NCBI GenBank assembly: GCA_017163975.1
Contig: JAFFSR010000351.1
Coordinates: forward strand, 2,997,501 to 3,061,500
DNA length: 64,000 bases
Source of the DNA: Anastatus disparis
Taxonomy: Eukaryota; Arthropoda; Insecta; Hymenoptera; Eupelmidae
Reading direction: 5' to 3'
Shown here: piece by piece, positions 24,669 to 64,000 of the stretch
How positions within the stretch are numbered: the first letter of the stretch is position 1
How the letters are laid out: every line of letters begins with the position of its first letter
The notes under the pieces: model-generated
What the model saw: the letters and a program-made list of their open reading frames with translations, nothing else
Told to the model about the DNA's origin: nothing
Databases searched by the model: none
Program-made: the position numbers and the translations under genes

Positions 24669-25259
24669 TAACACAGGCCCACAAAATGAAAAAAAATGTC
24701 TGAACTTTTGACCGGACATACATATTCCCATGTATTTTTCGACGCTGAATCCGAATCTGTAATAAAAATATAGGGTTTTCCTACCTTTTCTCAGAGTTTT
24801 ATTGAAAAAACCTCATTTTTTACGGTTTTTTTGCGGTTTTTCGAGTCTAGAAAAAACAAATCATGAGATACGGTTAATTGGACTTCAAAATCGAATTCTA
24901 CGGGAAAAAATACACGGGAAACCATACCTTCAAATTTTTTTAACGCGATTCTAGTCCTCTGTATGGGGCTGAAAAGATGAGGAAATCGGTAAAAGTCGAA
25001 ATTTTGCCTAAAATGGATTTAAACAATATTAAAATTTAATCATGCGTCTTTTGAAGAGTCGATAAACATTGGAAATACTATCCTGGGGGTTTTTCAGATT
25101 GCTGATCATGAATTTGAAGTCAGATTGTGTAAAAACTACTTCTAGAGGGCGGTGACAAGAACTGTATATGGTAAATTTATCGATTTTTTAAAAATTTTAC
25201 GTCTGAAATACTAATTTTAGAGTCTTTCACAGCATTGACTGTAAATTCAAGATATTAAC

Positions 25260-26666
25260 TTAGCCTATTGTGTACGTTAAACTTAACATTTTGTCTATGT
25301 TTGTCTCTCTCTCTCTCTCTCTCTCTTCCGATGTTTTTTTAAATTGGCTTACGCTTACGTACACGTTTCTCTTCGAATGACCGATGTAGTGGATTTCTGA
25401 CACGTTTTTGTCCTTTTTCGCAGCTGTTTCTCTTTTTATCATCCAGCAGTAATCTGCTAACATGTTGATACCCCAGTTTCCTTGAAATCTACGTTCAAAC
25501 TCCTTTAAATCTTGGTGAAATCGTTCACCATGCTCTTCACTAAAGTCTCCGTTATTTTCAGGAAACTGATCAACGTGTGAATCAAGAAAATGAAGTTTTA
25601 AGTTCATTAGACAACCCAATTTTTCAAAATTACGTACCATTCTTTTCACAATAGCTTTATAATTCGTGTCTTTGGCATTACCCAAAAATTTCGTCGATAC
25701 CTCTTTAAAACTTAACCATGCTGCCTTTTCAACATCAGTCATGCTTTGTTCAAAGTTTTCGTCTCTAAATAAAGTTCGGATTTCAGGACCATCAAAAATA
25801 CCTTCATTTAATTTAGCATCAGATTTATGGGGAAATACTTTGCTTATATATTGGAAGCATTGACCGTCCTTGTCCAAAGCTTTAACTAATTGCTTTATCA
25901 ATCCAAGCTTAATATGCAGAGGCGGTATCAAAATTTTCGAAGGATTAACGAGTGGATCTTTTATGACATTCTGTTTTCCAGGTTCAAACGATTCTCTTAA
26001 TGGCCAAATTTTCTTTTTATAGTGTTTTTCTCTATCTCTGCTATCAAACATGCATAAATAACATGGGTACTTCGTAAATCCAGATTGTTGTCCAAGTATC
26101 ATAGATAAAATCTTTAAATCGCCACATATTTGCCATTTATGTTCTCTATATTTTATTTTCGTTAAAAGTAGTTCAAGATTGGAATACTCTTCTTTAAGTA
26201 CTGTTGAATGTGCTAATGGTATAGGAGCATATTTATTTGTGATATTGAGGAGTACTGCTTTAAGGCTGCGCTTTGATGAATCAATGAATAGTCGCCAATT
26301 TTCAGGTTTCTATATGTTGGGTTTCAATTCATCAATAAGACCTTTCACGTCCGTGCAATAAACCATATTAGAATCATTCTTGAAATAATTTCTAAAGCGC
26401 TCTTCTCGATTACGATATGCACATACTTTAGTACCCTTTGTCAACATATTTCGTCTCTTAAACTCTGAAGCCATAAACTCTGATTGTTCCTTAGATAAAC
26501 CACTCTTTCTAAATAAATCGTTCAGACTTTTTTGATCAAACTTTTCAACAGTTCGTTCTTCACCCTTAGGAATATACTCTTCATCACTATCCAGAGAATG
26601 TTCTTCAGGTGAACTTAGATCTTCTTCATTTGGTGTGTTTGTGTCAGAGACAATTTGATCTGTCAA
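25260..26666 (-). pseudogene. Large uncharacterised insect protein, one in-frame stop
   Basis: One frame of 469 codons runs from 26666 to 25260 with a single TAG at about 26308. The N-terminal part is acidic (SPEEHSLDSDEEYIP), then KVCAYRNREERFRNYF, WRLFIDSSKRSLKAVLL just after the stop, and PLAHSTVLKEEY. The C-terminal part has FTKYPCYLCMFDSRDREKHY, a strongly conserved looking PPLHIKLGLIKQLVKALDKDG and GERFHQDLKEFERRFQG. I remember very similar uncharacterised proteins repeated in many insect and some cnidarian genomes, which fits a transposon-borne gene. Its function is unknown. The end is extended by a CT/GA microsatellite that encodes RERERE. It lies inside the inverted-repeat element and may be its own gene or a passenger. 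Confidence 0.65.
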
Positions 26667-26714
26667 TTTTTTATTTATACTTATTCTGTTGTAAAACTGG
26701 GTACTGTTGTTTAG

Positions 26715-27551
26715 TTGGACAACAATCTGGATTTACGAAGTACCCATGTTATTTATGCATGTTTGATAGCAGAGATAGAGAAAAACACTATAAAAAGAAA
26801 ATTTGGCCATTAAGAGAATCGTTTGAACCTGGAAAACAGAATGTTATAAAAGATCCACTCGTTAATCCTTCGAAAATTTTGATACCGCCTCTGCATATTA
26901 AGCTTGGATTGATAAAGCAATTAGTTAAAGCTTTGGACAAGGACGGTCAATGCTTCCAATATATAAGCAAAGTATTTCCCCATAAATCTGATGCTAAATT
27001 AAATGAAGGTATTTTTGATGGTCCTGAAATCCGAACTTTATTTAGAGACGAAAACTTTGAACAAAGCATGACTGATGTTGAAAAGGCAGCATGGTTAAGT
27101 TTTAAAGAGGTATCGACGAAATTTTTTGGGTAATGCCAAAGACACGAATTATAAAGCTATTGTGAAAAGAATGGTACGTAATTTTGAAAAATTGGGTTGT
27201 CTAATGAACTTAAAACTTCATTTTCTTGATTCACACGTTGATCAGTTTCCTGAAAATAACGGAGATTTTAGTGAAGAGCATGGTGAACGATTTCACCAAG
27301 ATTTAAAGGAGTTTGAACGTAGATTTCAAGGAAACTGGGGTATCAACATGTTAGCAGATTACTGCTGGATGATAAAAAGAGAAACAGCTGCGAAAAAGGA
27401 CAAAAACGTGTCAGAAATCCACTACATCGGTCATTCGAAGAGAAACGTGTACGTAAGCGTAAGCCAATTTAAAAAAACATCGAGAGAGAGAGAGAGAGAG
27501 AGAGAGACAAACATAGACAAAATGTTAAGTTTAACGTACACAATAGGCTAA
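26715..27551 (+). pseudogene. Inverted truncated copy of the same gene
   Basis: The right arm repeats residues from about 190 to the C-terminus of the minus-strand gene, starting with QQSGFTKYPCYLC. An extra T in a T run near 27126 shifts the frame (KEVSTKFFG* against KEVSTKFLGNAK), and the N-terminal part is absent. It is a by-product of the palindrome, not an independent gene. Confidence 0.85.
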
Positions 27552-28141
27552 GTTAATATCTTGAATTTACAGTCAATGCTGTGAAAGACTCTAAAATTAG
27601 TATTTCAGACGTAAAATTTTTAAAAAATCGATAAATTTACCATATACAGTTCTTGTCACCGCCCTCTAGAAGTAGTTTTTACACAATCTGACTTCAAATT
27701 CATGATCAGCAATCTGAAAAACCCCAGGATAGTATTTCCAATGTTTATCGACTCTTCAAAAGACGCATGATTAAATTTTAATATTGTTTAAATCCATTTT
27801 AGGCAAAATTTCGACTTTTACCGATTTCCTCATCTTTTCAGCCCCATACAGAGGACTAGAATCGCGTTAAAAAAATTTGAAGGTATGGTTTCCCGTGTAT
27901 TTTTTCCCGTAGAATTCGATTTTGAAGTCCAATTAACCGTATCTCATGATTTGTTTTTTCTAGACTCGAAAAACCGCAAAAAAACCGTAAAAAATGAGGT
28001 TTTTTCAATAAAACTCTGAGAAAAGGTAGGAAAACCCTATATTTTTATTACAGATTCGGATTCAGCGTCGAAAAATACATGGGAATATGTATGTCCGGTC
28101 AAAAGTTCAGACATTTTTTTTCATTTTGTGGGCCTGTGTAA

Positions 28142-29282
28142 TTCTCTTAATATTACTTAAATTATGTATATCTGAGTACTGGTATATGTCAATGATTGTG
28201 ATTTTTGACTTTTAATACATAATAAAAATATTTTTTTGTTTCTTTTTCTTTTTAATTGATGTACTTCTCCTATTTTCATTTTGGGAATTTCTCGAAATTT
28301 ATTATATTCGAAAAATTTTGTATTAGGGTTATCGCAAGGTAGACCATTTTCAGATACAACACATATTATATTATCATTTCTGTATTGGATTGGTTCTTTT
28401 ATTTGTATTAATTGTCTTTTGTTTATTTCTGAATTTTTCGTTGGTATTTATACTCAATAATGACCCTTCTGATATTTCAGATTTTTCTTCTGATGCTTCT
28501 GTTGAAGGATATAATGGTCTAGCTTTAGGATAAATTGATGGAATTGTTCCTTTATCACCATCAAAATTTTTCATTTGTTCTGTTATACTTTGTAAATCTG
28601 TATTAAATGTTTCATTATTAGAAATATTAGAATTTACAGAATTTTCATCTTCTGATTCGACAGATTTATTGTCTACTTCCTTAATTGCCTTATCATCTTG
28701 ATTTTCATTTTCTAAAAGTCTTTTTTGTTGAGCTCTTGTCATTATCCCTATTGTAGCCGTTTCTACTGGATTCCGCGATAGAGCTTCGACATTAGTATTT
28801 AATCTTTCTGGTTTATAAATGATTTGATAATCACATTCTGATAATTCAAATTGCCATTTTTGAATACGGGTATTTAAATCTGCAGTTTCAAACCATACCA
28901 AGGGTTGATGGTCAGTTATATTTGTAATTTTTCTTCCATATACATATGAACGAAAAGTGTCTACACTATCTATTATTGCTAAGGCCTTCTTTTCATATAC
29001 TTCATAGTGTAATTCTGGGCCTCATAATACACGCGAACTTTAAGCTATTGGTTGATCTTTTCCCCTTGTGATAGTACCCCTACGACTGCATAACCAAATG
29101 CGTCTGTTGTTATAATATAAGGTTCATTTAGATTTGGAAATTTTAATACTGGTGCTGCACATAAGGCTTCTTTTAATTCTTCAAAAGACTCATTGGTTTT
29201 TTTATTTCATTCGAAAGGTACATCTTTTTGTAATAATTTTGTCAAAGGCTTTGATATTTTATCAAAATCTTTTATAAAACGT
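28142..29282 (-). pseudogene. pol: Gypsy RNase H, connection region and tether (env-bearing provirus)
   Basis: Going along the minus strand: the end of RT/thumb, then RNase H with ITDHQPLVWF (about 28910) and the usual end of RNase H CDYQIIYKPERLNTNVEALSR, then an acidic low-complexity linker rich in N, S, E and D, and finally LPCDNPNTKFFEY before the inverted-repeat element. An in-frame stop follows the linker ORF at 28374. The order and spacing are normal for Gypsy Pol between RT and integrase. Confidence 0.8.
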
Positions 29283-30403
29283 CTATGGTATCCAGCAAGT
29301 CCTAAAAACTGTCGTACGTTTTTCACTGTTTTGGGTTGTGGAAATTCCTTCACTGCAATTTTTTTTTAGGATCAGCACTGATACCATTTCATCTAATTCA
29401 TGTATTAGATAAATTACATTTCTTTTAAGAAATTCACACTTATCTATTTGTAGCTCTAAGTTTGCATTTTTAAATCTTTCCATTAGCAATTCAAATTTTT
29501 CATCATATTCTTCTAATGAATTTGCATAAATTACTATGTCATCTAAATAGACAAATAATATATTTCCTTGTGATCCTATCAAATCTCTATCAATTAATCT
29601 TTGAAATAAAGAGAGCGCGTTTTTTCGGCCAAAACTCATTCTAGTGAATTCATAATGTCCAAACGGAGTGCTAAAAGCAGTCTTTTCCGCGTCTTCCTTA
29701 GCCATCTTGATTTGATGAAATCTACTGGCTAAATTCAACTTGATCAAATATTTCAGTTATATTTGGTAAAGAATATTTATCAGTTATTGTTTTGTCGTTT
29801 AATGCTCTAAAATCTTTGCAATCTTGGCTTTTCTGATAAGTCAGGTTTTTTTGGTACTATACATACAGGTGTGCTATAAGGTGAAGCTGAATCTCGAATT
29901 ATTCCATTTTCTAATAATTCTTGAACTTGACGATCAATTTCTTCTTTAAGAGCATGTGAAAATTTATATTTTCTTACTACTATCGGTTCATTATCAATAG
30001 TTGGTATCGTATGTTCTATTACGTCAGTGCCTGATAACTCATCTCTCGGCAAATGAAACCTTTCTTTATATTTATTTGCCAATTTAATCACATATTCTTC
30101 TTCTTCAGGTTCAAGATGATCTAGGCGTAATAAATCTCCTATTTTTAAAGTTTCGATATTATATATATTTTTAGTTTCAAAATTGTTTATTAGTGAATTT
30201 ATAATTACCAGATTTTCATTTATTTTATTTAATTTTTTAGAATCCAATTCTTCACTTATTTCTTGTAATGATATAAAATATTGATATTTTAAACCAATGT
30301 TCTCATTAGTCATATCAAATTCATCTGTATCTAATTCAGAAGGAATGTATGGTAAAGGTTCTGGTCTATACAAAGGTACTATTGATAAATCGTCTATAGC
30401 CAA
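29283..30403 (-). pseudogene. pol: Gypsy reverse transcriptase (env-bearing provirus)
   Basis: The first part (30403-29807) ends with ENGIIRDSASPYSTPVCIVPKK, the fingers region. After a frameshift the palm continues with FHQIKMAKEDAEKTAFSTPF, then YEFTRMSFGRKNA and the catalytic box FVYLDDIVIYANS. The YLDD form is typical of insect Gypsy elements of the 17.6/297 type. A second frameshift near 29370 disturbs the connection. All catalytic motifs are present but the frame is broken, so the enzyme is dead. Confidence 0.88.
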
Positions 30404-30427
30404 TTCTTTTTCTTGCCAAGGTATATA

Positions 30428-31180
30428 TTAAATTTTGTCCTTTTCATCCTTCTCTTCGAATTCCAAGGGAATTTTCATACCTCGTATTTCTAATGCTAAT
30501 AATTCATAGTCGATTATTGCTTCATTTTCATTTAAGAGCTCAACTCTTATTATACTGTCTGTTGGCATAGGGAATTCTTCGGGCACTACATGAAATGTAG
30601 CAATTGTGCCTAAAATTCCAATAGTCACTGCTTCAATCGTAAACATCAATTCTTTTCCTATACCTTTTAAAATTAATCGTTTACTAAGATCTACGTTACA
30701 ATCTTTAGGTAAAAAATTTTCTTTAATTAAATTTGTTTCTGATCCAGTATCTACTAAAAATCTTCTTAATATATCTGAGTCTAATTTTAACTGTATTGTT
30801 GGTAAAAATGTTTTAATATTATCTAATTCTATACAAATAAGCCTAAGATGTTCTAACTCTATTTCTTGATCATATTGTTTTAAAGGTACTATTACTTTAT
30901 TTACATCTAATATTTTTCTTTCGAAATCTATTTTAGATTTAGTTCATAAGAAAAATTCCGATCCTAATACTCCTTCAAAAGGTATTGGAAATGTTGATGA
31001 TACAACGAAAAATTCGGTGGGAAATCCTGCAATTCTTAATCGCACTACTCCCAATGTTACTACTGGCGTAGCACCGATTCCTTTTAGAATATAAGTTTTG
31101 TCTTTAGTTTTGTATATTTTTACCAGGAAATCTTATTCTGATGGTAGAGATTCTGCGAGTAGGTTGTTCATTTCCCTTTC
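30428..31180 (-). pseudogene. pol: Gypsy protease region with two retropepsin-like segments
   Basis: One segment carries the aspartic protease active site as RRFLVDTGSETNLI (about 30740) followed by LSKRLILKGIGKELMFTIEA and ATFHVVPEEFPMP. Upstream of it, about 31110-30960, a second, similar segment reads KTYILKGIGATPVVTLG, then GFPTEFFVVSSTFPIP and FEGVLGSEFF, which is the C-terminal half of a retropepsin without its own DTG. An in-frame stop separates the two. Either the protease domain was duplicated or this is the normal but degraded arrangement of this family. Confidence 0.65.
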
Positions 31181-39840: not shown

Positions 39841-40600
39841 TTAAGACTTTTTTCTTACGTGAATATCTCTTGCATTATTGTCACATACATACATACACAT
39901 ACACACGTACATATACACACGTACACATATACACGTACACATACATACATATACACACACACACATACATACGCTTACACACGTACACATACACACATAT
40001 ACACATATCCATGCACATACACTTACTTGCATACACAATATCCGTCACTCCGTCTCTGTCTCCATCATCGTCTCTCCGTCTCCGTTTCTTCGACATCGTC
40101 TTTTCGTCTCCGTCTCCGTCTCCGTCTCTCCGTCTCTCCATCTCCGTCTCTCCGTCTCCGTCTCTCCAACATCATCTTTCCATCTCCGTCACCGTCTCTG
40201 TCTATCCGTCTCCGTCTCTCCTTCTCCGCCTCTCCGTCTTTGGTTCTCCGTCTCCGTTTCTCCATCACCGTCTGTCTGTCCATGTCACTCTGTCTCTATG
40301 TCTCCATCTCTCCGTCTCCGTCTTTCTGTTTCCGTCTTTCCGTCTCCGACTTTCCGTCTCCGTCTTTCCGCCTTCGTCTTTCCGTCTCAGTCTCTCTGTC
40401 TCTATGTCCCCGTCTCTCCGTCTCCGTTTCTCTGACTCTGTCTTTCCGTTTCCGTCTCCTTCTCTCCGTCTCCGCTTCTCCGTCTTCGTCTATCTGTCTT
40501 TGTCTCTCCATCTCCGTTTCCTCGTCTACGTTTTTCCGTCTCCGTTTCACCGTTTCTCCGTCCTCGTCTCTCCGCAATCACATTAATATTACTACTATTA
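39841..40600. repeat. Composite repeat: ACATAC-type then TCCGTC arrays (copy 1)
   Basis: The unit starts with a conserved lead (CTTACGTGAATATCTCTTGC then ATTATTGTCACATACATAC), continues with degenerate ACACATAC repeats to about 40035, then about 540 bases of degenerate TCTCCG/TCCGTC hexamers, ending ATTACTACTATTATATT. The same order is repeated from 40601. Large open frames here on both strands are products of the repeat. Confidence 0.9.
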
Positions 40601-40925
40601 CTACTATTATATTAAAGTGAATAATTGAGACTTATTTCTTTCTTACGTGAATATTTTTTGCATTATTGTCACATACATACATACACATACACACGTGCAC
40701 CTTTAACATACACATACACACATACACTTACTTACATACAGAATATCCGTCACTCCATCTCCGTCTCCGTCATCGTCTCTGCATCTCCTCTCCGTCATTG
40801 TCTCTGCGTCTTCGTTTCCATTTCTCCGCCTCCGCCTCTCCATCTCTATGTCTCCGTCTCTCCGTCTCCGTTTCTCCGACACCGTCTCCGTCTTTTCGTA
40901 TCTATCACTGTCTCCGTATTTCTGA
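40601..40925. repeat. Composite repeat, shorter copy 2
   Basis: It repeats the lead (CTTACGTGAATATTTTTTGC), the ACATAC run and a shorter TCCGTC array. The lead similarity shows that the whole composite was duplicated, not just the simple repeats. Confidence 0.85.
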
Positions 40926-41460
40926 AAAATAAATCATACATGAAAATATATATATTTATATTCAATATGAAAAATAAATTATACAGAAAAAAACATATAT
41001 TTCAAACTGTCGTAACTCCTTATTGGTGGCTCTTTCTCACACAATCAAAAATTCATTTGGAAGTTAATAAGAAATAGAAGAAAATAAGCCCTCGAAAAGC
41101 AATTTCTGAAGTGGCAAACAATGAGTAATTTCAATTAATATGTAATACATATAAGAACCAATAGAAAACTTCAAAATTCAGGTCTGTAAAAAATCGTGCT
41201 AACTCTCCTCTTCATTTACAACAAGAAGTATTCCTATGAATTTTCCTCTAAAACATAAGGATTTTCAGAAAAACAATAATAGAGTTGGGACTTTTCCAAA
41301 AATTTTGAAAATTTTTTAAATTTCAAGGATCTATAGCTCTTGATCCTCTCAATCTAGATCATTCAAAATTTTTTTACATGTTTTGGATAACAGGATGAAT
41401 AGATTCTTGGAGTTTTACCGATTTTTATTTTTTTGCTCTCTCATTTAGCGTGAAATGTCC
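40926..41460. other. AT-rich DNA, nothing recognised
   Basis: No gene or clear repeat was found. Confidence 0.55.
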
Positions 41461-41461
41461 C

Positions 41462-41463
<2 letters not shown>

Positions 41464-41527
<64 letters not shown>

Positions 41528-42057
41528 TCCCATGTACATTTTCACATATACATGTCACAAACACACGTACACATAAACACATACAGTCATACACATAAAC
41601 ACACACACACACATACACATACACTCATGCACATAAACACATGCACACATATACATACGCACATACATCTCCGTCTCTTCATCTTCGTCACTCCGTCTCT
41701 CCGTCTTCGTTTCTCTATCTCCGTTTTTTCGTCTTCATCTCTCCGTCTCTCTACCTCCGTCTCTATGTCTATGTCTCTCCGTCTCTGCCTCTCCATCTCT
41801 GTCTCTCTGTCTCCATCCCTCCATCTAAGTCTCTTGTCTCCGTTCCTACGACTCCGTTTCTTTATCTTTGTCCCTCTGTCTCTGACCCTCCGTTTTCGTC
41901 TCTTTGTCTCTCTGTCTATGTCTCTTCACCTTCGTCTCTACGTTTTCGTCTTTCCGTCCCTCTATCTTCTTCTCTTCGTCTTTCCGTCTCCGTCTCTGTG
42001 TCTTTATCTGTCCATCTTCGTTCCTACATCTCCGTTTCTTCATCTTCATATCTTTGT
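41464..42057. repeat. Composite repeat, copy 3: (TA)n, ACATAC, TCCGTC-like
   Basis: A TA run (41464-41530) is followed by ACACATAC repeats to about 41667 and a degenerate TCTCCGTC array to about 42057. It lacks the lead sequence of copies 1 and 2. Confidence 0.85.
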
Positions 42058-42129
42058 TTGAAATACACGATTAGAAAAAATGAATTCCTATCATATTTTT
42101 TTATTGATTCAAATGGAATTCAGTAAAAC

Positions 42130-43195: not shown

Positions 43196-43306
43196 GCTCA
43201 TAGAGAAAGCATTGTATCGATGAAAAAATTTTTTACTATTTTTTCATTAATTTGTTCATATTTGAACTCAGGGAGTCGAAAAAAGTGGTTTCCAGAAAAT
43301 GTCTGT

Positions 43307-43545
<239 letters not shown>

Positions 43546-48853: not shown

Positions 48854-48858
48854 ATTCC
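48854..48858. repeat. Target-site duplication ATTCC, left
   Basis: ATTCC precedes the left LTR and is repeated at 57797-57801 after the right LTR. The pair also marks the break point in the protease gene. Confidence 0.85.
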
Positions 48859-49160
48859 TATAGGTTAAGTATATGTGATTGTAAATGATATAATATCCGA
48901 CTCCAGTAAATATTATCCCAGGACCTATAACCTGGATATTATGCGTGTTAAAGGAAGGTAGATAATAAATCTGCAACAAAATTAAATGTGAATATTAATT
49001 CTTTATTCAGTTAATCTTTCGCCAGCAACCACCAGCTTACGCGTCGAACTTGTATCTTAAAAGGTTCAGACGCTACTGGTACAAAGCCGCTGCTTCGTCT
49101 CTAACGATGATGAAGACGATTCGCGCCTGCGCAATACAAAACCATTTACATGGTCCCCAC
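48859..49160 (-). repeat. 3' LTR of the kinase element
   Basis: It corresponds to 57478-57796. On the minus strand it starts (T)GTGGGGACCATG and ends AACCTATA. The right copy carries about 17 more bases near its outer end, where GTGGGGACCAT is repeated as an inverted copy. Confidence 0.9.
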
Positions 49161-49163
49161 ACA

Positions 49164-49175
49164 CTCCCCCCCAAA
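49164..49175 (-). other. Polypurine tract of the kinase element
   Basis: TTTGGGGGGGAG lies just upstream of the 3' LTR on the minus strand. Confidence 0.8.
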
Positions 49176-49947: not shown

Positions 49948-50088
49948 TTATAACAAACAATATAAGTTTCTTAAGACTACGCTTTTGCTCGCACGACCTG
50001 TTTTACATTTTACTAACTCAACAAACAGTCGGTTGGTCTTTTCCTTAAAACGCTGTAATTCTTCAATGGTTCTGTCTAACTCATCCAT
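49948..50088 (-). CDS. 46-residue helical ORF after a splice acceptor
   Basis: The ORF starts MDELDRTIEELQRFKEKTNR and continues with LFVELVKCKTGRASK, a pattern that suits an amphipathic or coiled-coil helix followed by a basic stretch. Directly upstream on the minus strand is a good 3' splice site (TTATTTTGCAG then GTGACATGG), and a possible donor (ACAG then GTGATT) lies about 50 bases further up. It lies downstream of the kinase. It may be the last exon of the captured kinase transcript or a separate accessory ORF. No family recognised. Confidence 0.35.
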   Translation of the reverse strand: MDELDRTIEELQRFKEKTNRLFVELVKCKTGRASKSVVLRNLYCLL

Positions 50089-50201: not shown

Positions 50202-51410
50202 TTATAATAGATCTGAATTAAATCCTAATCCTATGTCAGGAATAAAATTGCATTTTATCATGCCGTCAAAAAGAATATTACCAATTCGCTGGTAGTCAAC
50301 AGCACGATTATGACGAACATGTGCCAACGTTTCCATACACTTAGTGAAGGCACTAGGTATCTCAGCTGCGTCAAAAACCACCTGTAAAAATGCAGGTATG
50401 TCATTAAAGGCTTGGGTTTTGTGTGATTGTAATGCCTGAATCCTATGTAACCCCGCCCATGGCAACGATCCGGTTACCCAAGCAATCATGTTATATATAA
50501 GCGATTCCATATCGCCGCGTTTGGTGAACATACCGTTATGGACATCTCTGCTTCTATACAAGTAATATCCCTTCTGAACTTTCGATAAATCTGATTTTAA
50601 TGGACCAGAATATACCGCAGTTACTTGACCAAAATCGATTAGGTAAACCTGATCTGGTTTCACCAAATCAAACAGAATATTAGATGATTTAAGGTCAGTA
50701 TGCACAACATTAGAATTATGCATAAATTCAAGGGCCAACGTAAGCTGCCACGCAATTGCAAGTACTTGCTGCAGAGGTAACTTTCGATTGGAATCACTTA
50801 ATACTTTCTCCAGATTAGCACCGTAACTCTGTATGATTACAAATCTATACAAGTCCTCATCGATTAAGAACTCTCCTTGCGCTAAAAATCTAGGAATAGC
50901 AAGAGCAGGAAGCTGGAATTGATTTAACTACCTTTCCAGCTTATCAAAGCTGGCATGCTTAAGATAAAAGTTAGTTTCAGTAGCCAAACGAGATCTCCTA
51001 ACTAATTCAAATTTGGCAATTGCTGATGGAAACTCGTGAGTAGAATCACCACAAGCCACAGCCTCCAAAATAAAACCAAATTTACCTTGATGAATCTCGT
51101 TTCCACAAGACCATCTCCGTCCTCGATTATCAGCAATGATAAGATCTATAGGATAATCTGGAGGATCTTCGCTAGCCACAGTCTCATTATTATTGTCAAC
51201 TCTGTCTAAAACGTCGTCAGAGGCGATGATGTCATCATCCGCGTCGATATTGCGGTGTGATTCAGGATTAGCCACTTGTTCAATAGCGTTGCCAGAATCA
51301 GTGTTGCGTTGTGACTCCAGGTCGGCAACAGCATTATCGGGAGCTAAATCCGCTGTATCTAAGTCGTGAACGCTGGAGTTTATAGCGTTAGGACTAATAT
51401 GCACCTGCAC
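50202..51410 (-). pseudogene. VRK-family protein kinase captured by the LTR element
   Basis: A frame of 403 codons with one internal TAG (50928-50930) directly follows integrase. Residues 1-95 are an acidic linker. The kinase domain then shows the glycine loop IHQGKFGFI, lysine in AIAKFE, a helix-C glutamate in ATETNFYLK, YRFVIIQSYGANLEKV, catalytic loop VVHTDLKSSNILF, PDQVYLIDFGQ, and HNGMFTKRGDMESL followed by TGSLPW. This matches vaccinia-related kinases (VRK/CK1 group), whose known substrates include the DNA-bridging protein BAF. All key residues are present; only the first glycine of the loop is replaced. No AUG occurs before the core, and integrase ends with UAG in the same frame, so a Pol-kinase fusion is likely. 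One stop makes this copy defective unless it is read through. Confidence 0.9.
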
Positions 51411-52958
51411 CTACACAACAGTTCTGTTATCCAGCTGTGGTTCCTCATTGGCTTGTGTTTCCGACGGAATGTCTTCATCAGTGTTGTCAAACAATCCATA
51501 CGCTGGCTTAAGCAATTCGGCGGCGACAGTTTTATTAACACCTTTCACTTCTATGACAAAATTTCTGCCATTAGAAGTTCTGGAAATTACCTTGTAAGGG
51601 CCTGAATAAGGCCTATCGAGAGTTGGTTTAATAGCTTTTACTCTGAGAAACACGTGAGAACACGTGTCAAGGTCTTTAAGTACAAACGCTTTGATCGCAC
51701 TGTTGTGCTGAACTGGCACCGGTCTTAACTCCCTCATGTATGCTCTAAATTCCTCTAAGAACGACGATTTGCACGGCTCACGGTCTGAAGAAGTGAAGAA
51801 TTCCCCGGGAACTCGCAGACCGGACCCATAAACAGAGTCGGCAGGACACGCTTGAGTGTCGTTACGCACACAAGTTCTCAAACCAAGTAAAACCAATGGG
51901 AGGGAGTCAACCCAGTTGCCATTATCAGTGTGGCAACAGAGAGCGGCCTTCAATGATGTATGCCACCTCTCAACTAATCCGTTAGCCTGAGGATGATAAG
52001 CAGTAGTGCGAATCCTAGCACAGCCAAGTATGCTTAGTAACTCAGTGAACATCTGTGACTCAAATTGAGCTCCCTGGTCCGTAGTTATGACTTCAGGAGC
52101 ACCAAATCTCGAAATCCAGTGCTCAACAAGGGCTTTAGCTACCGTTGTCGCCAATGTATCTTTAATAGGAACGGCTTCTGGCCATCTAGTGTATCTGTCT
52201 ATGATGGTCAATAAATGTTTATATCCGTTGCACAGAAGCAATGGTCCAACCAAGTCCAAATGCACGTGCGTGAATCTCTCGTCAGACACAGTAAAATGTT
52301 CTGGCAAAAATTTATTGTGCCTTGATACCTTGCACTGTTGACACTTAAGACAGTTTTTACACCATTTACTAATATCACGATGCATATTTGGCCAGACATA
52401 CTTGTTTCTAATTAGTCTTTCAGTGACCTTGGCACCTGGGTGCGAGTTGGCATGAAAAAGACCAAACGTTTTCTTTCTTAAAGACTTAGGTAAATAAGGT
52501 CTCAAGAACTGGCCCTGTATATCACAATAAATTGGTATATCAGCTCCCAGGGTTACCTTATGCAACTTCAAAGGATGCCTTTCATTCTGGAGTAACTTTG
52601 TCAACTCTTCGTCCTTCTCCTGTTCTTGATGTAAAACTGACAAGTCGTACATTAATGGCAAATGGAAAGCATCGACTCTTGCGTTCAGCTGATTAAATAA
52701 AATACAAATTTTTACCTCATTTAAATTCAGTATTTTAACTTCAGCTGTATTCTGTATTCGTGATAGAGTATCAGCGACTGTATTGCTCTCGCCCTCTATG
52801 TAACAGATCACGCAGTTGAACTGAGCAGTATAAGTCAACTGACGGATCTTACGGCTACAAGCTTTCTTCAAGCTTTGCGACATGGCAAAAACCAACGGTT
52901 TATGATCAGTGTATATTTTAAATTGTCTCGTTTCGACAAAATAATGGAAGTATTTCAA
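51411..52958 (-). pseudogene. pol: RNase H and integrase of the kinase element
   Basis: This is an open frame of 515 codons. RNase H end: FKIYTDHKPLVFAMSQSL and EGESNTVADTLSRIQ. Integrase zinc domain: HANSHPGAKV...CKNCLKCQQCKV. Catalytic triad: VHLDLVGPLL, VITTDQGAQFES and ANGLVERWHTSLKAAL, then the C-terminal module GPYKVISRTSNGRNFVIEV. It ends with LDNRTVV and UAG, which is followed in the same frame by the kinase. The link to RT (52955) is broken by a frameshift at about 52957, where TALKR meets KYFHYF. Integrase itself looks intact. Confidence 0.92.
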
Positions 52959-54540
52959 CGCTTCAAAGCTGTAAGCTCTCGATCATACACTGAATAATTC
53001 TTCTGCGCTGGCGTTAGCTCGCGAGAAAAGAAGGCTAAAGGTCGCCACTCACCACGAATATGCTGCTCTGAGGCAGCTCCCATAGCAAAGTGCGATACGT
53101 CCGTAATCAACCGTGTTTTAGCACGATCGTCAGGATACGCTAAAAATGTGACTTCAGCTAAGTCTTTTTTACTTTTTTCAAACGCAGTCTCACTTTCAGG
53201 ATCCCATTTAACAGGACGTTTATCTTTCTTACGACAATCTTTAAGATGTTGATTTAATAAACGCTGCGTGTGAGCTGCGCTGGGGATGCATCTCCTATAA
53301 AAGTTGATCATTCCAATATAACGACGTTGATCTACGATTTCTGGTTTCAGAAAGTCCAAGATGGCTCGAACTTTACTAGGTGAAGGCCGAAAACCCTCTT
53401 CGCTGATGTTATAACCCAAGAAATCCAATTCCTTTACTCCAAAGATACATTTCTCAATATTAAGTAAGAGATGCGATTCTTCTAACCTTTTCAAAACGGT
53501 AAGAAGATGACACTCATGTTCTTCTTTACTAGAAGAGGCGATGAGTATATCATCAATATAGACGAATACAAACTCCAGATCTCTGAGCACTTTATTGACA
53601 TATCGCTGGAATGTTTGAGCAGCGTTCCGCAGTCCAAAAGTCATCACTTTATATTCAAAAAGTCCAAATGGTGTTATCACTGCTGTTTTAGGAATGTCAG
53701 GCTCCGCAACAGGAATCTGATAATAAGCTTTCTTTAAATCCAGAGATGAGAAAATAGATTTTCTGCTCAAGAATGATGGGAAATCATGGAGGTGTGGTAC
53801 TGGGTACCTATCAGGTACTGTAACTTGGTTTAAAGCCCTATAATCACCACAGATTCTCCAACTACCGTCTTTCTTAGGAACCATGTGAATGGGACTTGCC
53901 CATGGGCTACTTGATGGCTGACAAATGCCTAAATCACAGAGCTCTTTAAACTCCTTTTTAGCTGCCTGGAGCTTAATTGGACACAAACGTCTCGCTCTAT
54001 GAGCAATCGGTGGTCCAGTGGTCTTTATATAGTGCTTGACACCTCGATCTTTAAAAAGTGCTGCCTGTTCAACTCCCAGTACTTTGGGAAACTTGTTAAG
54101 CACATGAGCATAGCTATGATTTGATGCTACCAATGACACTCTAAAATATTTAACTTTTTTCTCTATGGCATTAACAGAACGCAGTGTGTTGCCATCAACC
54201 AACCTCCTATCCTTTAAATCAGGAAGTAAATGATAAAACTTAAGTAAGTCTCCTCCAATTATAGGGTAAGGCACATCTGCAAAGATAAAATTCCACACTG
54301 TAATTCTATCAATGCCTATATCTAACTTCTTGCTTATAGTTCCATAAGTCTTAATCCAAGTGTCATTAGCTGCTTATAACTTAATGTTGGGAGTATAATC
54401 CAACTTAAGAGAACCTCTAGGTAACAGAGAAACTTCTGCGCCAGTGTCAATCAGGAAAAGATCCTTACTGATTAAATCTTTGATATGGAGGTGAGCTGAT
54501 CCTTTACTATTATCTGCTGATACCTCCGCTACAGCAGATC
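52955..54540 (-). pseudogene. pol: Protease and reverse transcriptase of the kinase element
   Basis: The frame starts just after gag, shifted relative to it. The retropepsin has IDTGAEVSLLPRG (about 54450), then a TAA at 54374-54376, and [15 protein letters not shown] has [67 protein letters not shown] and the catalytic [13 protein letters not shown], followed by [17 protein letters not shown] is the metal-binding box. The frame ends at 52955 at the break in RNase H. One stop and one frameshift make this copy inactive, although most of it is well kept. Confidence 0.92.
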
Positions 54541-55842
54541 TTATGCATTTCCCTGATCTGGCTTTTTCTTATTAGCCAGTGCGGTGAATTCAGCATATCT
54601 ACTACATGCTTTTATGCATTTCAGGGCTTTATTACCAAATTTCTTATGGTGCCAACATAAGTTCACTGAACTATCTTCGGCATCACGCTCGACATCAGTG
54701 TTACGCCTACGCTTTACCTTTTTTTCGTTACCCTGTTTCTGTTTTCTATCAAATTGGTGTTTTTTAAAAGCTCTCTCCAAGGCCTCAACTCTAGCTTCAA
54801 TTCTACTTTCTATATCTGAGATGTTGCTAGGCTGCTGAGCGACAGAATGTACAACATTTTCCTTATTCTGCAAAGTCTCCCAGATTTTCTGTGCCTGATC
54901 AAGGAGCATCTGCTCAGTTAACAGATCAGCATTTGGACCTAAATAAAGAATTATTTCTTTAGGAAGTCGTTCTTTCCAGACCTTCCATATGGTGGACCTA
55001 GGTACATAGACACCTTCAAGGTCAATTAGTCTATGAAAGAAATCCGTGGGACCCATCGTACCCATCTTTTGATCAGCAAATAATTTATCCAATTTTTGAT
55101 CAGGAGACTGTGCATACTGTTTAATAACAGCTTGCTTTAGATCAGTATACTTTGAGCCTGGGGGTGAACGTTTAATTGTATGCTTAAGCAACTGCACCTC
55201 ATCCTTGCCAAGATTCTGTAACAGAACCCAGAATTTATCTTCGCCTCGGCATATGTTCCTACGTGACAACTGTACTTCTAAGAGAGAGAACCACGTATCG
55301 ACTTCATCTCTCCATAACGGTAGAAACTTGATTTCAGCTGATGGATTATTTTGTGAGTTTTGCCTTGAATTGATTAATGGCAACTCTTGCCGAGAAGAAG
55401 ACGTTGTTGCAGGAGAGTTAACCCCAGCACTCGTATACACAGGTGGCGTGTGGACCAAAGCGGATACCGTTATAGTTGACATTGAAGATACCGTCACATC
55501 ATCAGAATTGAGTGCTATAACAGGTATTGTTCTCTGGTAATTGCCAGTGTCAACGTTAGGAGTTCGTTTGTGTTGATTAACAGCAGCCTGTGCAAGCTTG
55601 TCCAACGCATCGGTCATAGAAGCCAATTTTTCCTCCAATAACCCTATTATTTCGCTACCTGTTGTCTTCTTTGTCGTTTTAGGCGTTTTGTTACTTGTTT
55701 TTCCTAAGCTACCTGAACTATTGTCCTCATTACTCTCAATACCGGTCTCTTGTACCTCGGTTTCAGGTGGAGCCATTTTATAAATCGTTAGGTTTCTAGT
55801 CCTAGAATGTTGATCAGGGGGCGAATGCTCAATGTTTGGCAT
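54541..55842 (-). CDS. gag: Gag of the kinase element
   Basis: This is an intact ORF of 433 codons. After a polar N-terminus it has a helical stretch (SEIIGLLEEKLASMTDALDK), the capsid with LPLWRDEVDTWFSLLEVQLS, DKFWVLLQNLGKDEVQLLKH and LDKLFADQKMGTMGPTDFFH, and a basic C-terminus with the Cys/His block LCWHHKKFGNKALKCIKACS, the form found in K02A2.6-like Gypsy gag instead of a standard zinc knuckle. Pol follows in another frame, implying ribosomal frameshifting. This is the best preserved gene of the element. Confidence 0.88.
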   Translation of the reverse strand: MPNIEHSPPDQHSRTRNLTIYKMAPPETEVQETGIESNEDNSSGSLGKTSNKTPKTTKKTTGSEIIGLLEEKLASMTDALDKLAQAAVNQHKRTPNVDTGNYQRTIPVIALNSDDVTVSSMSTITVSALVHTPPVYTSAGVNSPATTSSSRQELPLINSRQNSQNNPSAEIKFLPLWRDEVDTWFSLLEVQLSRRNICRGEDKFWVLLQNLGKDEVQLLKHTIKRSPPGSKYTDLKQAVIKQYAQSPDQKLDKLFADQKMGTMGPTDFFHRLIDLEGVYVPRSTIWKVWKERLPKEIILYLGPNADLLTEQMLLDQAQKIWETLQNKENVVHSVAQQPSNISDIESRIEARVEALERAFKKHQFDRKQKQGNEKKVKRRRNTDVERDAEDSSVNLCWHHKKFGNKALKCIKACSRYAEFTALANKKKPDQGNA

Positions 55843-57460
55843 ATCTAATTCACAAAACGCTTTTTAACACTCCTGTGCTCAGTACCCACACTAACAGCTG
55901 GTCTGAGTCACCACACCACAATTCTTTATCACACATTCGTGCATACACAAACTCACACAGGGGGCAAACCAAGTCACTGGACAAAAATCCAGACTTAATA
56001 TTTTAAAACAATTGAAGCTTACTACAATATTAAAATCAAACAGCGAATGTTCACGCAGCAAGCTGGAAATCTGCCAGAGGTCAATTCACCCAGGCGGACA
56101 AGGATGGCACCTTAAGTGTCCAGGTGACCGCCCCGACAAACTCCAAACCGAATGAATACCGCATACTATTCAAATGACACTATTTAAATCCTTAGTCCAC
56201 TGACCTGCGGGCTCATTTAAGAGATCGAAAATTGCTATCGCAAAAAGAATAAAATACTATTTAAAGTTTAATTTTTTTCCTATCTAAAACTGACTAGAAA
56301 ATCGGCTGGTCGTGCGTAGCATCTTAATAAAAAGAGCGAAATTCAAGCAGTAAAATATACTTAAAATTTAAAGAAATAACTCATTTTAACAATTACAATT
56401 TCATAATTCAAATTATATTGATTTTCAGTAACTTGATTTAATACAGGCTTGACTTTTTCGGTCTTTTATGTTGCTTCTTGGTTTTCTAATCAACAAGAAA
56501 AAAAATTTTGTCAAATCGCACTTTAAATAAATTTATAAAAATTTAAAAGAGATAAACTTTATTCCTTTGAATTTTCAAGTTAATTAAAAAAAAATTAATT
56601 TACTTTAGCGAAGAAATTTCTTTGAAAAAAGGAAAAATTAAATTTTACTATTTTGACCAAGAAGCAAACGTCTAATTGAGTTAAAATTCGCTCCAACTCA
56701 AAATGTTAGTTATAAAAACACGAACAAAAATTTCACATTACAAAGCTTAAACGCACGCCGCGTCCCGGAAGTACGTTATCAAAAAGAAAATCTTCTAATC
56801 GAGTTGCGTGTGTTGACGAAAGTCGTGTAACGCAATACACGCGTTAATACACAAAATGGCGTCTAAACCACCTTCTTGTTACATAACACAGAACGACGCC
56901 AATATGGGCGTCAAAAAGCTTTTATGTACTGTGTATATATAAAAATGACGCCAACATGGCCGTCAAGATGCTTTCCCGCACAGCAAAAAAAAAATATACG
57001 CTAGTATTTCATATACAAAATTACGCTTTTTTTTTAAACGTTAAATTCCCTTAAGAATAAATAAGCGCAAGGTATTCAAACAAATATGTATCTCTTGATG
57101 ATACGATGTTAGTATGGAGCGAATTTCGCAAGTACTAAATAAATACCTTAATACCTTCGTCGTGCTGTAGAGAAGCCTCACCCGGCTGCTGTCGACGTGC
57201 AGGCAAAAACGATGCGAAGCGATGGCCGCCCGATGTGCAGAGAAAGATGATGCAAGACGATGGCTGCGAACTGCGTTGCAACCTCGCTGACACCTCGTGA
57301 GCAAAAGAGTTATGCCCACGGAACCTCTGAAAAAGAAAATCCTCTTCGTGCACTCTTCTTGATTGCACCAGGCGTTGAGGGTCCCTTTTTTTTTAAAAAA
57401 ATCCAAAGACCCAAGGCGAAACGGTTCTCATGTTGCAGACAAAAGAATGAAAAACCTCCT
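55843..57460 (-). other. Leader of the kinase element
   Basis: This is a long 1.6-kb non-coding leader. It has repeated GACGCC...GGCGTC motifs, some forming hairpins (GACGCCAATATGGGCGTC at about 56894; GACGCCAACATGGCCGTC at about 56946). Frames at 57041-57406 look like chance. No gene was recognised. Confidence 0.5.
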
Positions 57461-57477: not shown

Positions 57478-57796
57478 TATAGGTTAAGTGTATTTGATTG
57501 TAAATGATAATTTATCCGACTCCATATTATATCCATAATGTTATCCCAGGACCTATGACCTGGGTATTATGCGTGTTAATGGAAGGTAGATAATAAATCT
57601 GCAACAGAATTAAATGTGAATATCAATTCTTTATTCAGTTAATCTTTCACCAGCAACCACCGGCTTACGCGTCGAACTTGTATCTTAAAAGGTTCAGACG
57701 CTACTGGTACAAAGTTGCTGCTCCGTCTCTAACGATGATGAAGACGATTCGCGCTTGCGCAATACAGAATGTGGGGACCATTTACATGGTCCCCAC
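57478..57796 (-). repeat. 5' LTR of the kinase element
   Basis: This is the partner of 48859-49160, with scattered substitutions and small indels (for example GTATTTGATTG against ATATGTGATTG). The outer end has the inverted pair TGTGGGGACCAT / ATGGTCCCCACA. Confidence 0.9.
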
Positions 57797-57802
57797 ATTC
57801 CA

Positions 57803-60249: not shown

Positions 60250-61075
60250 ATATTAATCAAAAATCATCTAGATTATCCATTCTTTCCAAATTCTCTTAAC
60301 GTCTGATGCTTTTATCCAAGAATTAAATTTATCTGGATATCCTTTCCACTTTACAAATAGCTGTTTTTTATTTCCGCTCCCTTTGGTCTAAAGAACGCGT
60401 TCAATCTTAAAATTTTGATCTTCCAGCAGTCGCTGTGAACCTACAGGAGACAATTCTTCTGCATAGAAAAAACCGTCCTAGTAAATCTTGTAACTCGTAG
60501 GTATAAAGATTTTGTCTGATAGAGAAGCGTTTAACTTTAAATACTTCCTTGCTACAATTCTTCTCAAATCCTTTCGCAAAGGTTCCCTTAGAGCGACTGA
60601 TCCTCACGTAGTCACCAACCTCGTATTTACAGTCTATTATTTGTCTTTGATTTTTTCTTTGCAGAGGAGCGCGCCTCTGTAAATTCGCTCGTGCCGCAGC
60701 CACGTTATATAAATTAATCTCTGAAAGTTTTATCTTTACGCTTGAACGGACTGTATTGTTGTATGCATAAACTATCTTTTGTATTACATCGATGTACCTA
60801 TGTGTATAGCGATATATGAAATATCTCCAAACACGTTCCTTAAGAGTTCGATTAAGACGTTCTACCATTGCCGCCTTAATGTCCGCATTTCTTGCCACTC
60901 TAAACTGTATGATATATTTTTTAAGAGTATTTTGCAAACCTGCTCCAACAAACTCTTTATCTTTGTCAGTTCGTAAGTAAACAGGTGTACAACCATTGGC
61001 TCGCTTAAGAATCTTCTCTAATGTAGCTGATACAGTATGCGCTGTTTTATCCCGCAATGGTTTAGCCTGTGGGCA
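60250..61075 (-). pseudogene. INT: Polinton integrase with C-terminal chromodomain
   Basis: From AKPLRDKTAHTVSATLEKIL the minus strand gives the second half of the retroviral-like core: YLRTDKDKEFVG with the second Asp and AAMVERLNRTLKERVWRYF with the Glu, then the C-terminal module YEVGDYVRISRSKGTFAKGF. A frameshift at about 60465 moves the end into another frame, where YAEELSPVGSQRLLEDQNF leads into a chromodomain (FKIERVL, stop, LFVKWKGYPDKFNSWIKASD). The first catalytic Asp is lost because a plus-strand LTR element begins at about 61080. Integrase with a chromodomain is a hallmark of Polintons. Confidence 0.85.
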
Positions 61076-61079
61076 CATA

Positions 61080-61352
61080 CACATAGAAATGTGTAGAGTA
61101 TATGTAAGCGCCACGCGCACCCTGCGGTGCGCAAGCTAGCGACGGCAAGTAAGCCGAGACTAGTAGATGCCTGCGAACTGGTAAGACACAGCGTGCTCAA
61201 CCTCTGACAAGATAAGTCTCTTTTGTTCACCTTGTACTCTCAGGTAATATTAAGCAGCAAATAAAGACAAGGCCTTTATTGTGATTCCAGAGTCTGGTTA
61301 TTTCACCATCCTCTACCTCATCTTCCTTGTATATTGTGCCCAGAGGCACACA
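61080..61352 (+). repeat. 5' LTR of a plus-strand Gypsy element (left edge approximate)
   Basis: The LTR ends in GGCACACA at 61352 just before the primer site. It contains AATAAAGACAAGGCC (61261), a good polyadenylation context. The left edge is near TGTGTAGAGTATATGTAAGC, where Polinton integrase coding stops, but the exact base is not certain because the 3' LTR is outside the window. Confidence 0.65.
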
Positions 61353-62928: not shown

Positions 62929-64000
62929 ATGAATAGTTTTAAAAGTGATAATATCGAAATGAAGGACGGAAAAGAGAATGATAGCGAAACGAGTGAAGCA
63001 GAATACGTGTCAACGGTACGTAATAGTACGCCGAAAAAAAATGAAAAAGATAATGAACGCGATCGGTATAGAGAACAAATAGATTTTAATAGAATGTACG
63101 CGTTAGGAAATAACAGTTTAAAAGGAAACGACGGATTAGAAGAGGTATTAATTAAAGAAACAAGAAAAATAGACGAACAGTATAAACGGAAGTTCGAAGA
63201 ATTAAAGAATTATTACGAAAATAATATGCAGTCTTTGAAGAAAAAAATAGAAACGTTAGAGGGAGATAGTAACAGACAAAAGGCGTACGGAAATAACGCG
63301 ATGCATACAGACGACAACACCCGCGCGCAAAGGTTAGGCGGAGATATCCAAGCAAAGGATAATAGCTTAGAGTTCCAACAATTAGCACAGGGTAGCTTGT
63401 TGCAATTCCGGCAGATTAATTTTCCCTTTTGGAAACACGATCCGGAAACGTGGTTTGAACTGTTCGAAAAACAAATGCAATTACAGAACGTAAATGAGGA
63501 TAGTGTAGGTTTTATGCTGTTGATCGCGAATCTAGATGGAGACGTAGTTCGCGAGACATCGAACTTAGTTAAAACATTGAAAAACGGACAAAGATACAAC
63601 GGTATAAGCGATTTTTTATTAGAGAAATACGGACAGTCACAAGAGGAGCGTTTTAATAGGTTATTTAGAAAATGTCGTGAGCAAGAAAAACCCTCCGACT
63701 TCCTAAGGGAAATGTTAGACGTAGCAGGCCAAAATATAAAAAGAGAGGTTATCTTAAAAGCCTGGAAATATAATCTACCCCCAAAAATAAAAAAGATTTT
63801 GTTAGGCGAAATAAAGCTACGAAATGAATCATCCATGGTAAACCATGCCGATGAAATTTATAAAAATGAACTTGGAGAGGTCGGTAAAGTAGGAAATGTT
63901 AACGCAGTTGACCATACGTGGGTAGATACGTCGCATGATAATCAGCCGGGTATAGGTAAAGTAGATAGGGTAGGTAATGTAGGAAAAATTAATTTAGATG
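62929..64000 (+). CDS. gag: Gag of the plus-strand Gypsy element, partial
   Basis: An open frame of 357 codons runs from ATG at 62929 off the window end. The N-terminal 130 residues are polar and coiled-coil-like (KIDEQYKRKFEELKNYYEN). The capsid follows: INFPFWKHDPETWFELFEKQ, DSVGFMLLIANLDGDVVRET, YNGISDFLLEKYGQSQEERF and REQEKPSDFLREMLDVAGQN, closing with WKYNLPPKIKKILLG. This is the standard pattern of insect Ty3/Gypsy gag (PxxW...QF.., SQEERxxxL, PSxFLRxM). The frame is intact, so the element may be recent. Cysteine-rich end and pol would lie beyond 64000. Confidence 0.88.
   Translation, partial: MNSFKSDNIEMKDGKENDSETSEAEYVSTVRNSTPKKNEKDNERDRYREQIDFNRMYALGNNSLKGNDGLEEVLIKETRKIDEQYKRKFEELKNYYENNMQSLKKKIETLEGDSNRQKAYGNNAMHTDDNTRAQRLGGDIQAKDNSLEFQQLAQGSLLQFRQINFPFWKHDPETWFELFEKQMQLQNVNEDSVGFMLLIANLDGDVVRETSNLVKTLKNGQRYNGISDFLLEKYGQSQEERFNRLFRKCREQEKPSDFLREMLDVAGQNIKREVILKAWKYNLPPKIKKILLGEIKLRNESSMVNHADEIYKNELGEVGKVGNVNAVDHTWVDTSHDNQPGIGKVDRVGNVGKINLD

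What the first reader, a model, noticed from the sequence alone, without database searches (positions are those of the whole stretch)
50202..51410. LTR retrotransposon that has captured a VRK-family protein kinase
Between integrase and the 3' LTR, in the position where env usually sits, the element encodes a protein kinase with VRK signatures: YRFVIIQSYGANLEKV, VVHTDLKSSNILF, PDQVYLIDFGQ and HNGMFTKRGDMESL. Lysine, helix-C glutamate, HxD and DFG are all kept. Cell-derived kinases are known in acute transforming retroviruses of vertebrates, but I know of no described insect Gypsy element with a VRK. The LTRs, target duplication and common strand show that it is part of the element, not a host gene beside it.
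Basis: partly seen in the sequence, partly recalled or inferred. Interest (0 to 1): 0.95.

Follow-up and report, generated by a model that had tools for sequence, protein, structure and literature searches.

The report
Jumping gene with a captured kinase
In this unnamed, probably arthropod genome a whole group of virus-like jumping genes carries a copy of the cell's VRK kinase joined to the end of its integration enzyme, and natural selection has kept it; in several branches the kinase has lost catalytic residues but is still preserved.

Summary
Window 57797-48859 (minus strand) is a Gypsy-type LTR element: LTRs, target duplication GGAA, DUF7041 gag, RT-RNase H, integrase, then a VRK kinase. 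This copy is decayed. The kinase is not a separate gene in the env position but the C-terminus of Pol: nine of 20 relatives fetched have it in one open frame of 1,438-1,499 aa. The genome gave 150 scored kinase matches, 12 inside uninterrupted frames of at least 1,400 aa; three elements checked have 100% identical LTRs. The kinases form four groups. One keeps every catalytic residue examined; the others have mostly lost key ones, yet two such pairs show dN/dS of about 0.1. The window's DFG is the exception in its family. The genome has two intron-bearing host VRK genes; the captured kinases group with one (51% identity at best, moderate support). Related elements lack the kinase. Structure, mobility and selection are shown; one capture is likely, not proven. 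Function is inferred: most likely the module travels with integrase and acts on BAF (barrier-to-autointegration factor) or host VRK, as poxvirus B1/B12 do. My capped searches found no Pol-VRK fusion in other species.

The parts
57478..57797 (-). 5' LTR
   Evidence: Direct repeat with 48859-49161; K2P 0.059 over 302 columns.
57798..57801 (-). Target duplication GGAA, 5' side
   Evidence: Flank read.
54541..55863 (-). Gag frame, 440 aa, DUF7041
   Evidence: Pfam PF23055, 3.3e-11.
52955..54373 (-). Pol piece: reverse transcriptase and first part of RNase H (472 aa, broken at both ends)
   Evidence: Pfam RVT_1 3.1e-34, RT_RNaseH_2 1.7e-21; longer open frame in relatives.
51411..52982 (-). Pol piece: end of RNase H and integrase (523 aa; ends at an in-frame stop)
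   Evidence: Pfam H2C2 1.9e-17, rve 1.6e-13.
50928..51410 (-). Pol piece: acidic linker and N-lobe of the VRK domain (160 aa, no Met codon; ends at an in-frame stop inside the kinase domain)
   Evidence: only VRK matches in the PDB, weak.
50202..50927 (-). Pol piece: rest of the VRK domain (241 aa)
   Evidence: Pkinase 3.2e-16; VRK1 about 1e-29.
49948..50088 (-). Remnant of the third ORF: its first 16 or so residues joined to a stretch from near its end
   Evidence: Both parts align to ORF3 of L021 at residues 13-28 and about 550-566.
49162..49172 (-). Polypurine tract before the 3' LTR
   Evidence: Read.
48859..49161 (-). 3' LTR
48855..48858 (-). Target duplication GGAA, 3' side

Best explanation
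An ancestor of these Gypsy-type elements captured a spliced mRNA of a cellular VRK gene and joined it in frame to the end of Pol, behind integrase. SHOWN: the kinase is the C-terminus of Pol in many copies and in several deep groups; it is intronless while two host VRK genes have introns; pairs of copies show purifying selection on it; one group keeps all catalytic residues examined and others have lost some. INFERRED: as part of Pol it is packaged with RT and integrase and stays near the cDNA. There the active form most likely does what VRK1 and poxvirus B1 do, phosphorylate BAF (barrier-to-autointegration factor) so that it lets go of DNA, which would free the cDNA or tune its use by integrase. 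The forms without catalytic residues most likely bind BAF or host VRK instead, as vaccinia B12 does with VRK1. The window copy is a decayed, ORF3-deleted member of family A.
For: One open Pol-VRK frame in nine of 20 fetched loci with RT, RNase H, integrase and kinase in L021 and L034. 150 scored matches, 12 in uninterrupted frames of at least 1,400 aa. LTR pairs 100% identical in three elements. Kinase dN/dS 0.11 (L017-L021, dS 0.53) and 0.10 (L034-L035, dS 1.25) against 0.06 and 0.04 for RT-IN. Group C catalytic residues intact in 7 of 7 rows where covered, VRK1 at 3.5e-67. Two host VRK genes with introns, element kinases grouping with one of them at 82/94. BAF link from abstracts: B1 inactivates BAF (PMC6395007); B12 binds VRK1 and redistributes BAF (PMC9175622).
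Against: No test of a substrate was possible; the BAF step rests on descent alone. Groups B and D, and 12 of 13 close family A rows, lack residues needed for normal catalysis, so a phosphorylation model covers group C best. Single origin is weakly supported: all element kinases 79/72; RT tree of kinase-bearing rows 60/68.9; a tree with group C beside host C135 is not rejected (AU p 0.13); group D sits with C by RT and integrase but with A and B by kinase (AU p 0.055 and 0.045). Some kinase dN/dS pairs rest on few changes (1.08 on 5 for L021-L022; 0.33 on 7 for L031-L033; 0.21 on 13 for L031-L032). Co-delivered VRK1 lowered reporter expression from transfected DNA (PMC12718190 abstract). At least some close relatives lack the kinase, so it is not essential to this kind of element.
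Confidence: 0.45

Rival explanations
1. Chromatin targeting: the VRK fold is kept as a chromatin- or nucleosome-binding module that steers integrase, as chromodomains do in chromoviruses (recalled); catalysis is optional.
For: The domain sits behind integrase; selection persists after catalytic residues are lost; [quoted passage not shown]
Against: Group C keeps all catalytic residues examined, which binding alone does not need; insertion-site preference was not tested.
Confidence: 0.2
2. Self-phosphorylation: the kinase acts on the element's own Gag, integrase or ORF3 protein to time assembly or uncoating.
For: It is made as part of Gag-Pol and so is close to these proteins.
Against: Groups that have lost catalytic residues are still constrained; VRK ancestry points to BAF and chromatin (recalled, and abstracts).
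Confidence: 0.15
3. Passenger: a piece of host message transduced with no function for the element.
For: The window copy is broken; catalytic residues are lost in several groups.
Against: Kinase dN/dS about 0.1 at dS 0.53 and 1.25; open frames in recent copies.
Confidence: 0.03
4. The kinase is a host gene or retrocopy that happens to lie in or beside this one element.
For: It is the only kinase match in the window and is separated from integrase by an in-frame stop in this copy.
Against: The same in-frame junction recurs at other loci; no poly(A) tract or own duplication is apparent in the sequence read.
Confidence: 0.01

Closest known systems
Orchid (Phalaenopsis) Ty3/Gypsy elements with a captured AlkB RNA demethylase (PMC9289625; abstract seen)
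   Same: Gypsy-type elements that acquired and fixed a cellular enzyme domain.
   Different: There an additional ORF with an RNA demethylase in plants; here a kinase inside the Pol frame behind integrase, in an animal genome, with groups that lost catalytic residues.
Bdelloid rotifer LTR elements with enzymatic third ORFs (GDSL esterase, DEDDy exonuclease; PMC5408684, abstract seen)
   Same: Animal LTR elements with non-env accessory genes.
   Different: Separate ORF3s and other enzymes; no kinase mentioned in the abstract.
Rice and sorghum LTR elements with captured gene pieces, kinase domain over-represented (PMC3726574; two passages seen)
   Same: Kinase-domain sequence inside LTR elements.
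   Different: Plant survey; the passages seen describe no conserved Pol fusion and no VRK.
Vaccinia virus B1 kinase and B12 pseudokinase (PMC6395007, PMC9175622; abstracts, and passages of the latter)
   Same: VRK-type kinase and pseudokinase carried by a DNA-delivering parasite of animal cells; likely the same host pathway.
   Different: Free proteins of a large DNA virus; here the tail of a retroelement Pol. The likeness is of kind, not of descent.
Acute transforming retroviruses with captured kinases (recalled)
   Same: Host kinase inside an LTR element.
   Different: Those are recent, usually replication-defective captures; here gag and pol are kept and the kinase is old and constrained.

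Membership tests
Ty3/Gypsy LTR retrotransposon | Two LTRs with a short target duplication | tested here: met
   Window GGAA, L017 GACC, L021 GCTA, L031 AATC; depends on the LTR start taken in L034 and L035, unclear in L026, absent in L036.
Ty3/Gypsy LTR retrotransposon | Pol order RT, RNase H, integrase | tested here: met
   Pfam on the window and on L021 and L034.
Ty3/Gypsy LTR retrotransposon | Polypurine tract, and a primer site right after the 5' LTR | tested here: inconclusive
   Both seen by eye; the tRNA was not identified, and L036 has no such primer-like start.
VRK kinase family | Closest to VRKs among kinases | tested here: met
   Best PDB matches are VRK1, ahead of casein kinase 1; tree with two CK1-like outgroups.
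Catalytically competent protein kinase | Lysine, helix-C glutamate, HxD, Asn and DFG present | tested here: inconclusive
   Group C met in 7 of 7 rows where covered; not met in B (0 of 10 keep HxD or DFG aspartate), D (0 of 9 keep DFG aspartate) and 12 of 13 close family A rows.
Env-bearing insect retrovirus (errantivirus) | Third ORF encodes a membrane glycoprotein | tested here: not met
   No TM segment in the 8 kinase-bearing ORF3 frames scanned; LRR-like weak matches. The frame of kinase-less L039 has one TM-like stretch before its ORF3 match.
Acute transforming retrovirus | Captured kinase replaces replication genes | tested here: not met
   Gag and Pol frames are kept.
BAF kinase (B1/VRK1-like function) | Phosphorylates BAF | not testable with these tools
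   Needs an enzyme assay; only descent and catalytic residues support it.

The most novel reading that the evidence does not exclude
A retroelement lineage has built a BAF/VRK module onto integrase: active groups phosphorylate BAF on the incoming cDNA, and groups without catalytic residues bind BAF or host VRK instead. That would be an independent counterpart of the poxvirus B1/B12 pair and a direct sign that BAF is a real, selected barrier to retrotransposition in animals.
Probability: 0.35. Interest if true: 0.95.

Novelty: new variant of a known kind. Interest (0 to 1): 0.85.

Why it matters
BAF is described as protecting retroviral DNA from autointegration (PMC3178605, abstract start in the listing), yet whether it matters to retroelements in nature is open as far as I know. 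A retroelement group that keeps a VRK, of the family of kinases that controls BAF, joined to its integrase gives a natural system in which to test this. It also shows a captured kinase turning into maintained pseudokinase-like domains inside mobile elements, with active-looking and inactive-looking groups side by side in one genome.

Tried and rejected
Env reading of the third ORF: rejected. Nested retrocopy or host gene: rejected by in-frame copies at other loci. Passenger: made unlikely by dN/dS. NXF1- or ANP32-like reading of ORF3: left open, only weak matches. Relatives in viral contigs: scans with the window kinase, integrase and RT and with the group C kinase confirmed none, and a VRK motif pattern had 0 matches. 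Prokaryote contigs gave 8 distant kinase-like loci. The homolog search with the 241-aa piece gave 4 weak kinases. The homolog search with an open Pol-VRK frame, limited to its kinase part, gave 6 proteins, none with Pol domains listed. Host VRK by the tail of P0126 found nothing; by a Timema kinase piece it found two genes. My first association count used an incomplete kinase list with one dummy entry; it was redone with all 150 and gave the same result. A script with a wrong option gave no element rows and was redone. Kinase dN/dS between families A and B is saturated at silent sites and was not used. No structure was predicted.

Full report
What is in the window. On the minus strand of 57797-48859 lies an LTR element: LTRs 57797-57478 and 49161-48859 (12 transitions, 5 transversions over 302 columns, K2P 0.059), flanked by GGAA on both sides. 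Inside, in order, are a DUF7041 gag frame (440 aa), a reverse transcriptase frame, an integrase frame and two kinase pieces in the integrase frame. RNase H is split between the RT and integrase frames, so there is a frameshift; in-frame stops lie after integrase and inside the kinase domain. The copy is dead. No other kinase match lies in the window.

It is a VRK. The 241-aa piece matches VRK1 in the PDB at about 1e-29. The 160-aa piece before it has nine PDB matches up to E 10, all VRK1 or VRK2, each weak alone (0.31 to 1.1) but colinear with the first set. The intact group C kinase from the same genome matches VRK1 at 3.5e-67 over 303 residues.

It is part of Pol. The own genome (939 Mb, 399 contigs) returned 150 scored matches of 286 candidates, 143 places after merging within 1.5 kb. 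Twelve of the 150 lie in frames of at least 1,400 aa with no stop in the match. I fetched 20 of these places with 10 kb each, chosen across the identity range and leaning to open frames. Nine show one Pol frame of 1,438-1,499 aa that ends in the kinase (L017, L021-L023, L031-L035). Pfam finds RVT_1, RNase H, H2C2, rve and Pkinase in one L021 frame, and in one L034 frame, where Pkinase (29.6 bits) is just below its curated cut-off of 31.7. The gag and pol frames differ in 5 of 6 copies checked, as in a -1 frameshift; L022 is the exception. So the kinase is most simply made as the tail of Gag-Pol. In the window copy the part of this frame before the kinase core has no Met codon (translation).

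It is mobile and recent. LTR pairs are 99.67% identical in L017, 99.1% in L034, 98.5% in L036 and 97.7% in L026; L019 shows a 201-bp pair at 97.5% without a clear duplication. They are 100% identical in L021/L041 (313 bp), L031/L042 (300) and L035/L043 (361). Four-base duplications are plain in L017, L021, L031 and the window; in L034 and L035 they depend on where the LTR is taken to start, in L026 they are unclear and in L036 absent.

Groups. Kinase trees give groups A (with the window), B, C and D; A and B as wholes have only moderate support in the larger trees. Catalytic residues over 41 rows, window included: C keeps HxD, Asn and DFG in 7 of 7 rows, and the glycine loop (5 of 5), lysine (6 of 6) and helix-C glutamate (6 of 6) where covered. 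Close family A keeps HxD in 13 of 13, but the DFG aspartate only in the window copy (11 GFG, 1 SFG). B has lost the HxD and DFG aspartates in 10 of 10. D has lost the DFG aspartate and the catalytic-loop asparagine in 9 of 9. Two rows beside A, L030 and L063, keep DFG; L030 has lost the HxD aspartate.

Selection. By Nei-Gojobori counts the kinase has dN/dS 0.11 between L017 and L021 (dS 0.53) and 0.10 between L034 and L035 (dS 1.25); RT-IN has 0.06 and 0.04, the linker 0.24 and 0.20. Both pairs lack the DFG aspartate, so these pseudokinase-like domains are maintained. Other pairs say little: L031-L032 0.21 on 13 kinase changes, L031-L033 0.33 on 7, L021-L022 1.08 on 5; the three A-B pairs are saturated.

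Origin. Two host VRK genes with introns lie at C225 and C135. All element kinases together are one group at 79/72, and with host C135 at 82/94. L031 is 51% identical to host C135 and 37% to host C225, over 313 and 326 columns. This fits one old capture of a spliced VRK message but does not prove it: the RT tree joins all kinase-bearing rows at only 60/68.9, a tree with group C beside host C135 is not rejected (AU p 0.13), and group D goes with C by RT and integrase but with A and B by kinase (AU p 0.055 and 0.045). Relatives without the kinase exist: 52 of the 90 scored RT relatives (of 8,938 candidates) had none of the 150 kinase matches downstream, while the best 15 all did. Both lists are capped, so the 52 is an upper bound. 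Of four such loci fetched, L037-L039 have Pol frames of 1,162-1,191 aa without a kinase, and L040 one of 1,477 aa that ends in something else.

Third ORF. 14 of the 21 kinase-bearing stretches examined (20 loci and the window) have a further ORF after the kinase, 530-600 aa where it is open (several run off the fetched stretch); it is also found, more distantly, in kinase-less L037 and L039, was not seen in L038, and in L040 it is fused to Pol in place of a kinase. L017, L018, L019, L026, L034, L036 and the window lack all or most of it. No TM segment was seen in the 8 kinase-bearing frames scanned. The best hints are weak LRR matches. The window keeps only a remnant joined from two ends.

How it most likely works. 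Shown: structure, mobility, selection, loss of catalytic residues in some groups. Inferred: packaging with integrase, and action on BAF or host VRK. The inference rests on descent: vaccinia B1 inactivates BAF (PMC6395007, abstract); B12, a pseudokinase, binds VRK1 and moves BAF (PMC9175622, abstract) and lowers fitness when B1 is defective (PMC6395007, abstract). An engineered system that carries VRK1 with DNA reduced BAF clusters but lowered reporter expression (PMC12718190, abstract), so the sign of the effect on a retroelement is open.

Novelty. Paper searches for VRK or VRK1 with transposable-element terms and for captured-kinase or added-ORF terms showed no report of a retroelement VRK in their listings; listings were cut at 10-20 rows and the library lacks most subscription papers. 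Captured kinase-domain genes in plant LTR elements are in print (PMC3726574, passages). Among 895 candidates (about 824-2,623 aa by the tool's length rule) 6 proteins matched the kinase part; the four scanned with Pfam showed no Pol domain, and the two from Daphnia list none either.

Noticed in passing
L021:8201-9976, and the same place in L020-L025, L027-L033 and L035; remnant at window 49948-50088: A further conserved ORF after Pol-VRK, without TM segment; weak LRR matches (NXF1- and ANP32-type among them). Possibly an intracellular LRR protein in the place where env would sit.
   Followed up: partly
L040 (C44): A kinase-less relative whose Pol frame (1,477 aa) ends in the ORF3-like LRR protein: the end of Pol takes up other modules too.
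   Followed up: partly
Pol tails of L031-L039: A short motif of the form K/R-V/I-x-F near the old end of Pol (KKVTF, KKIRF, KRIRF; similar in L038) resembles the PP1-docking RVxF motif; seen by eye, motif recalled.
   Followed up: no
Window copy, kinase at 50202-50927: DFG in the window copy against GFG or SFG in its 12 closest relatives examined: either an old variant or a later single change.
   Followed up: partly
Families A-D, kinase against RT trees: Group D changes place between kinase and RT or integrase trees; exchange of the kinase module between elements is possible but borderline.
   Followed up: partly
Window 3457-4095, 24039-30943, 60407-61135, 63421-63861: Remains of other Gypsy-type elements (integrase, RT, RNase H and gag pieces).
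   Followed up: no
Window 39882-42126 and 43300-43542: Long arrays of simple repeats (CTCCGT-like and TG).
   Followed up: no
P0005 (Leptotrombidium deliense): Database protein that holds the same integrase segment twice in tandem, which inflates its score.
   Followed up: no
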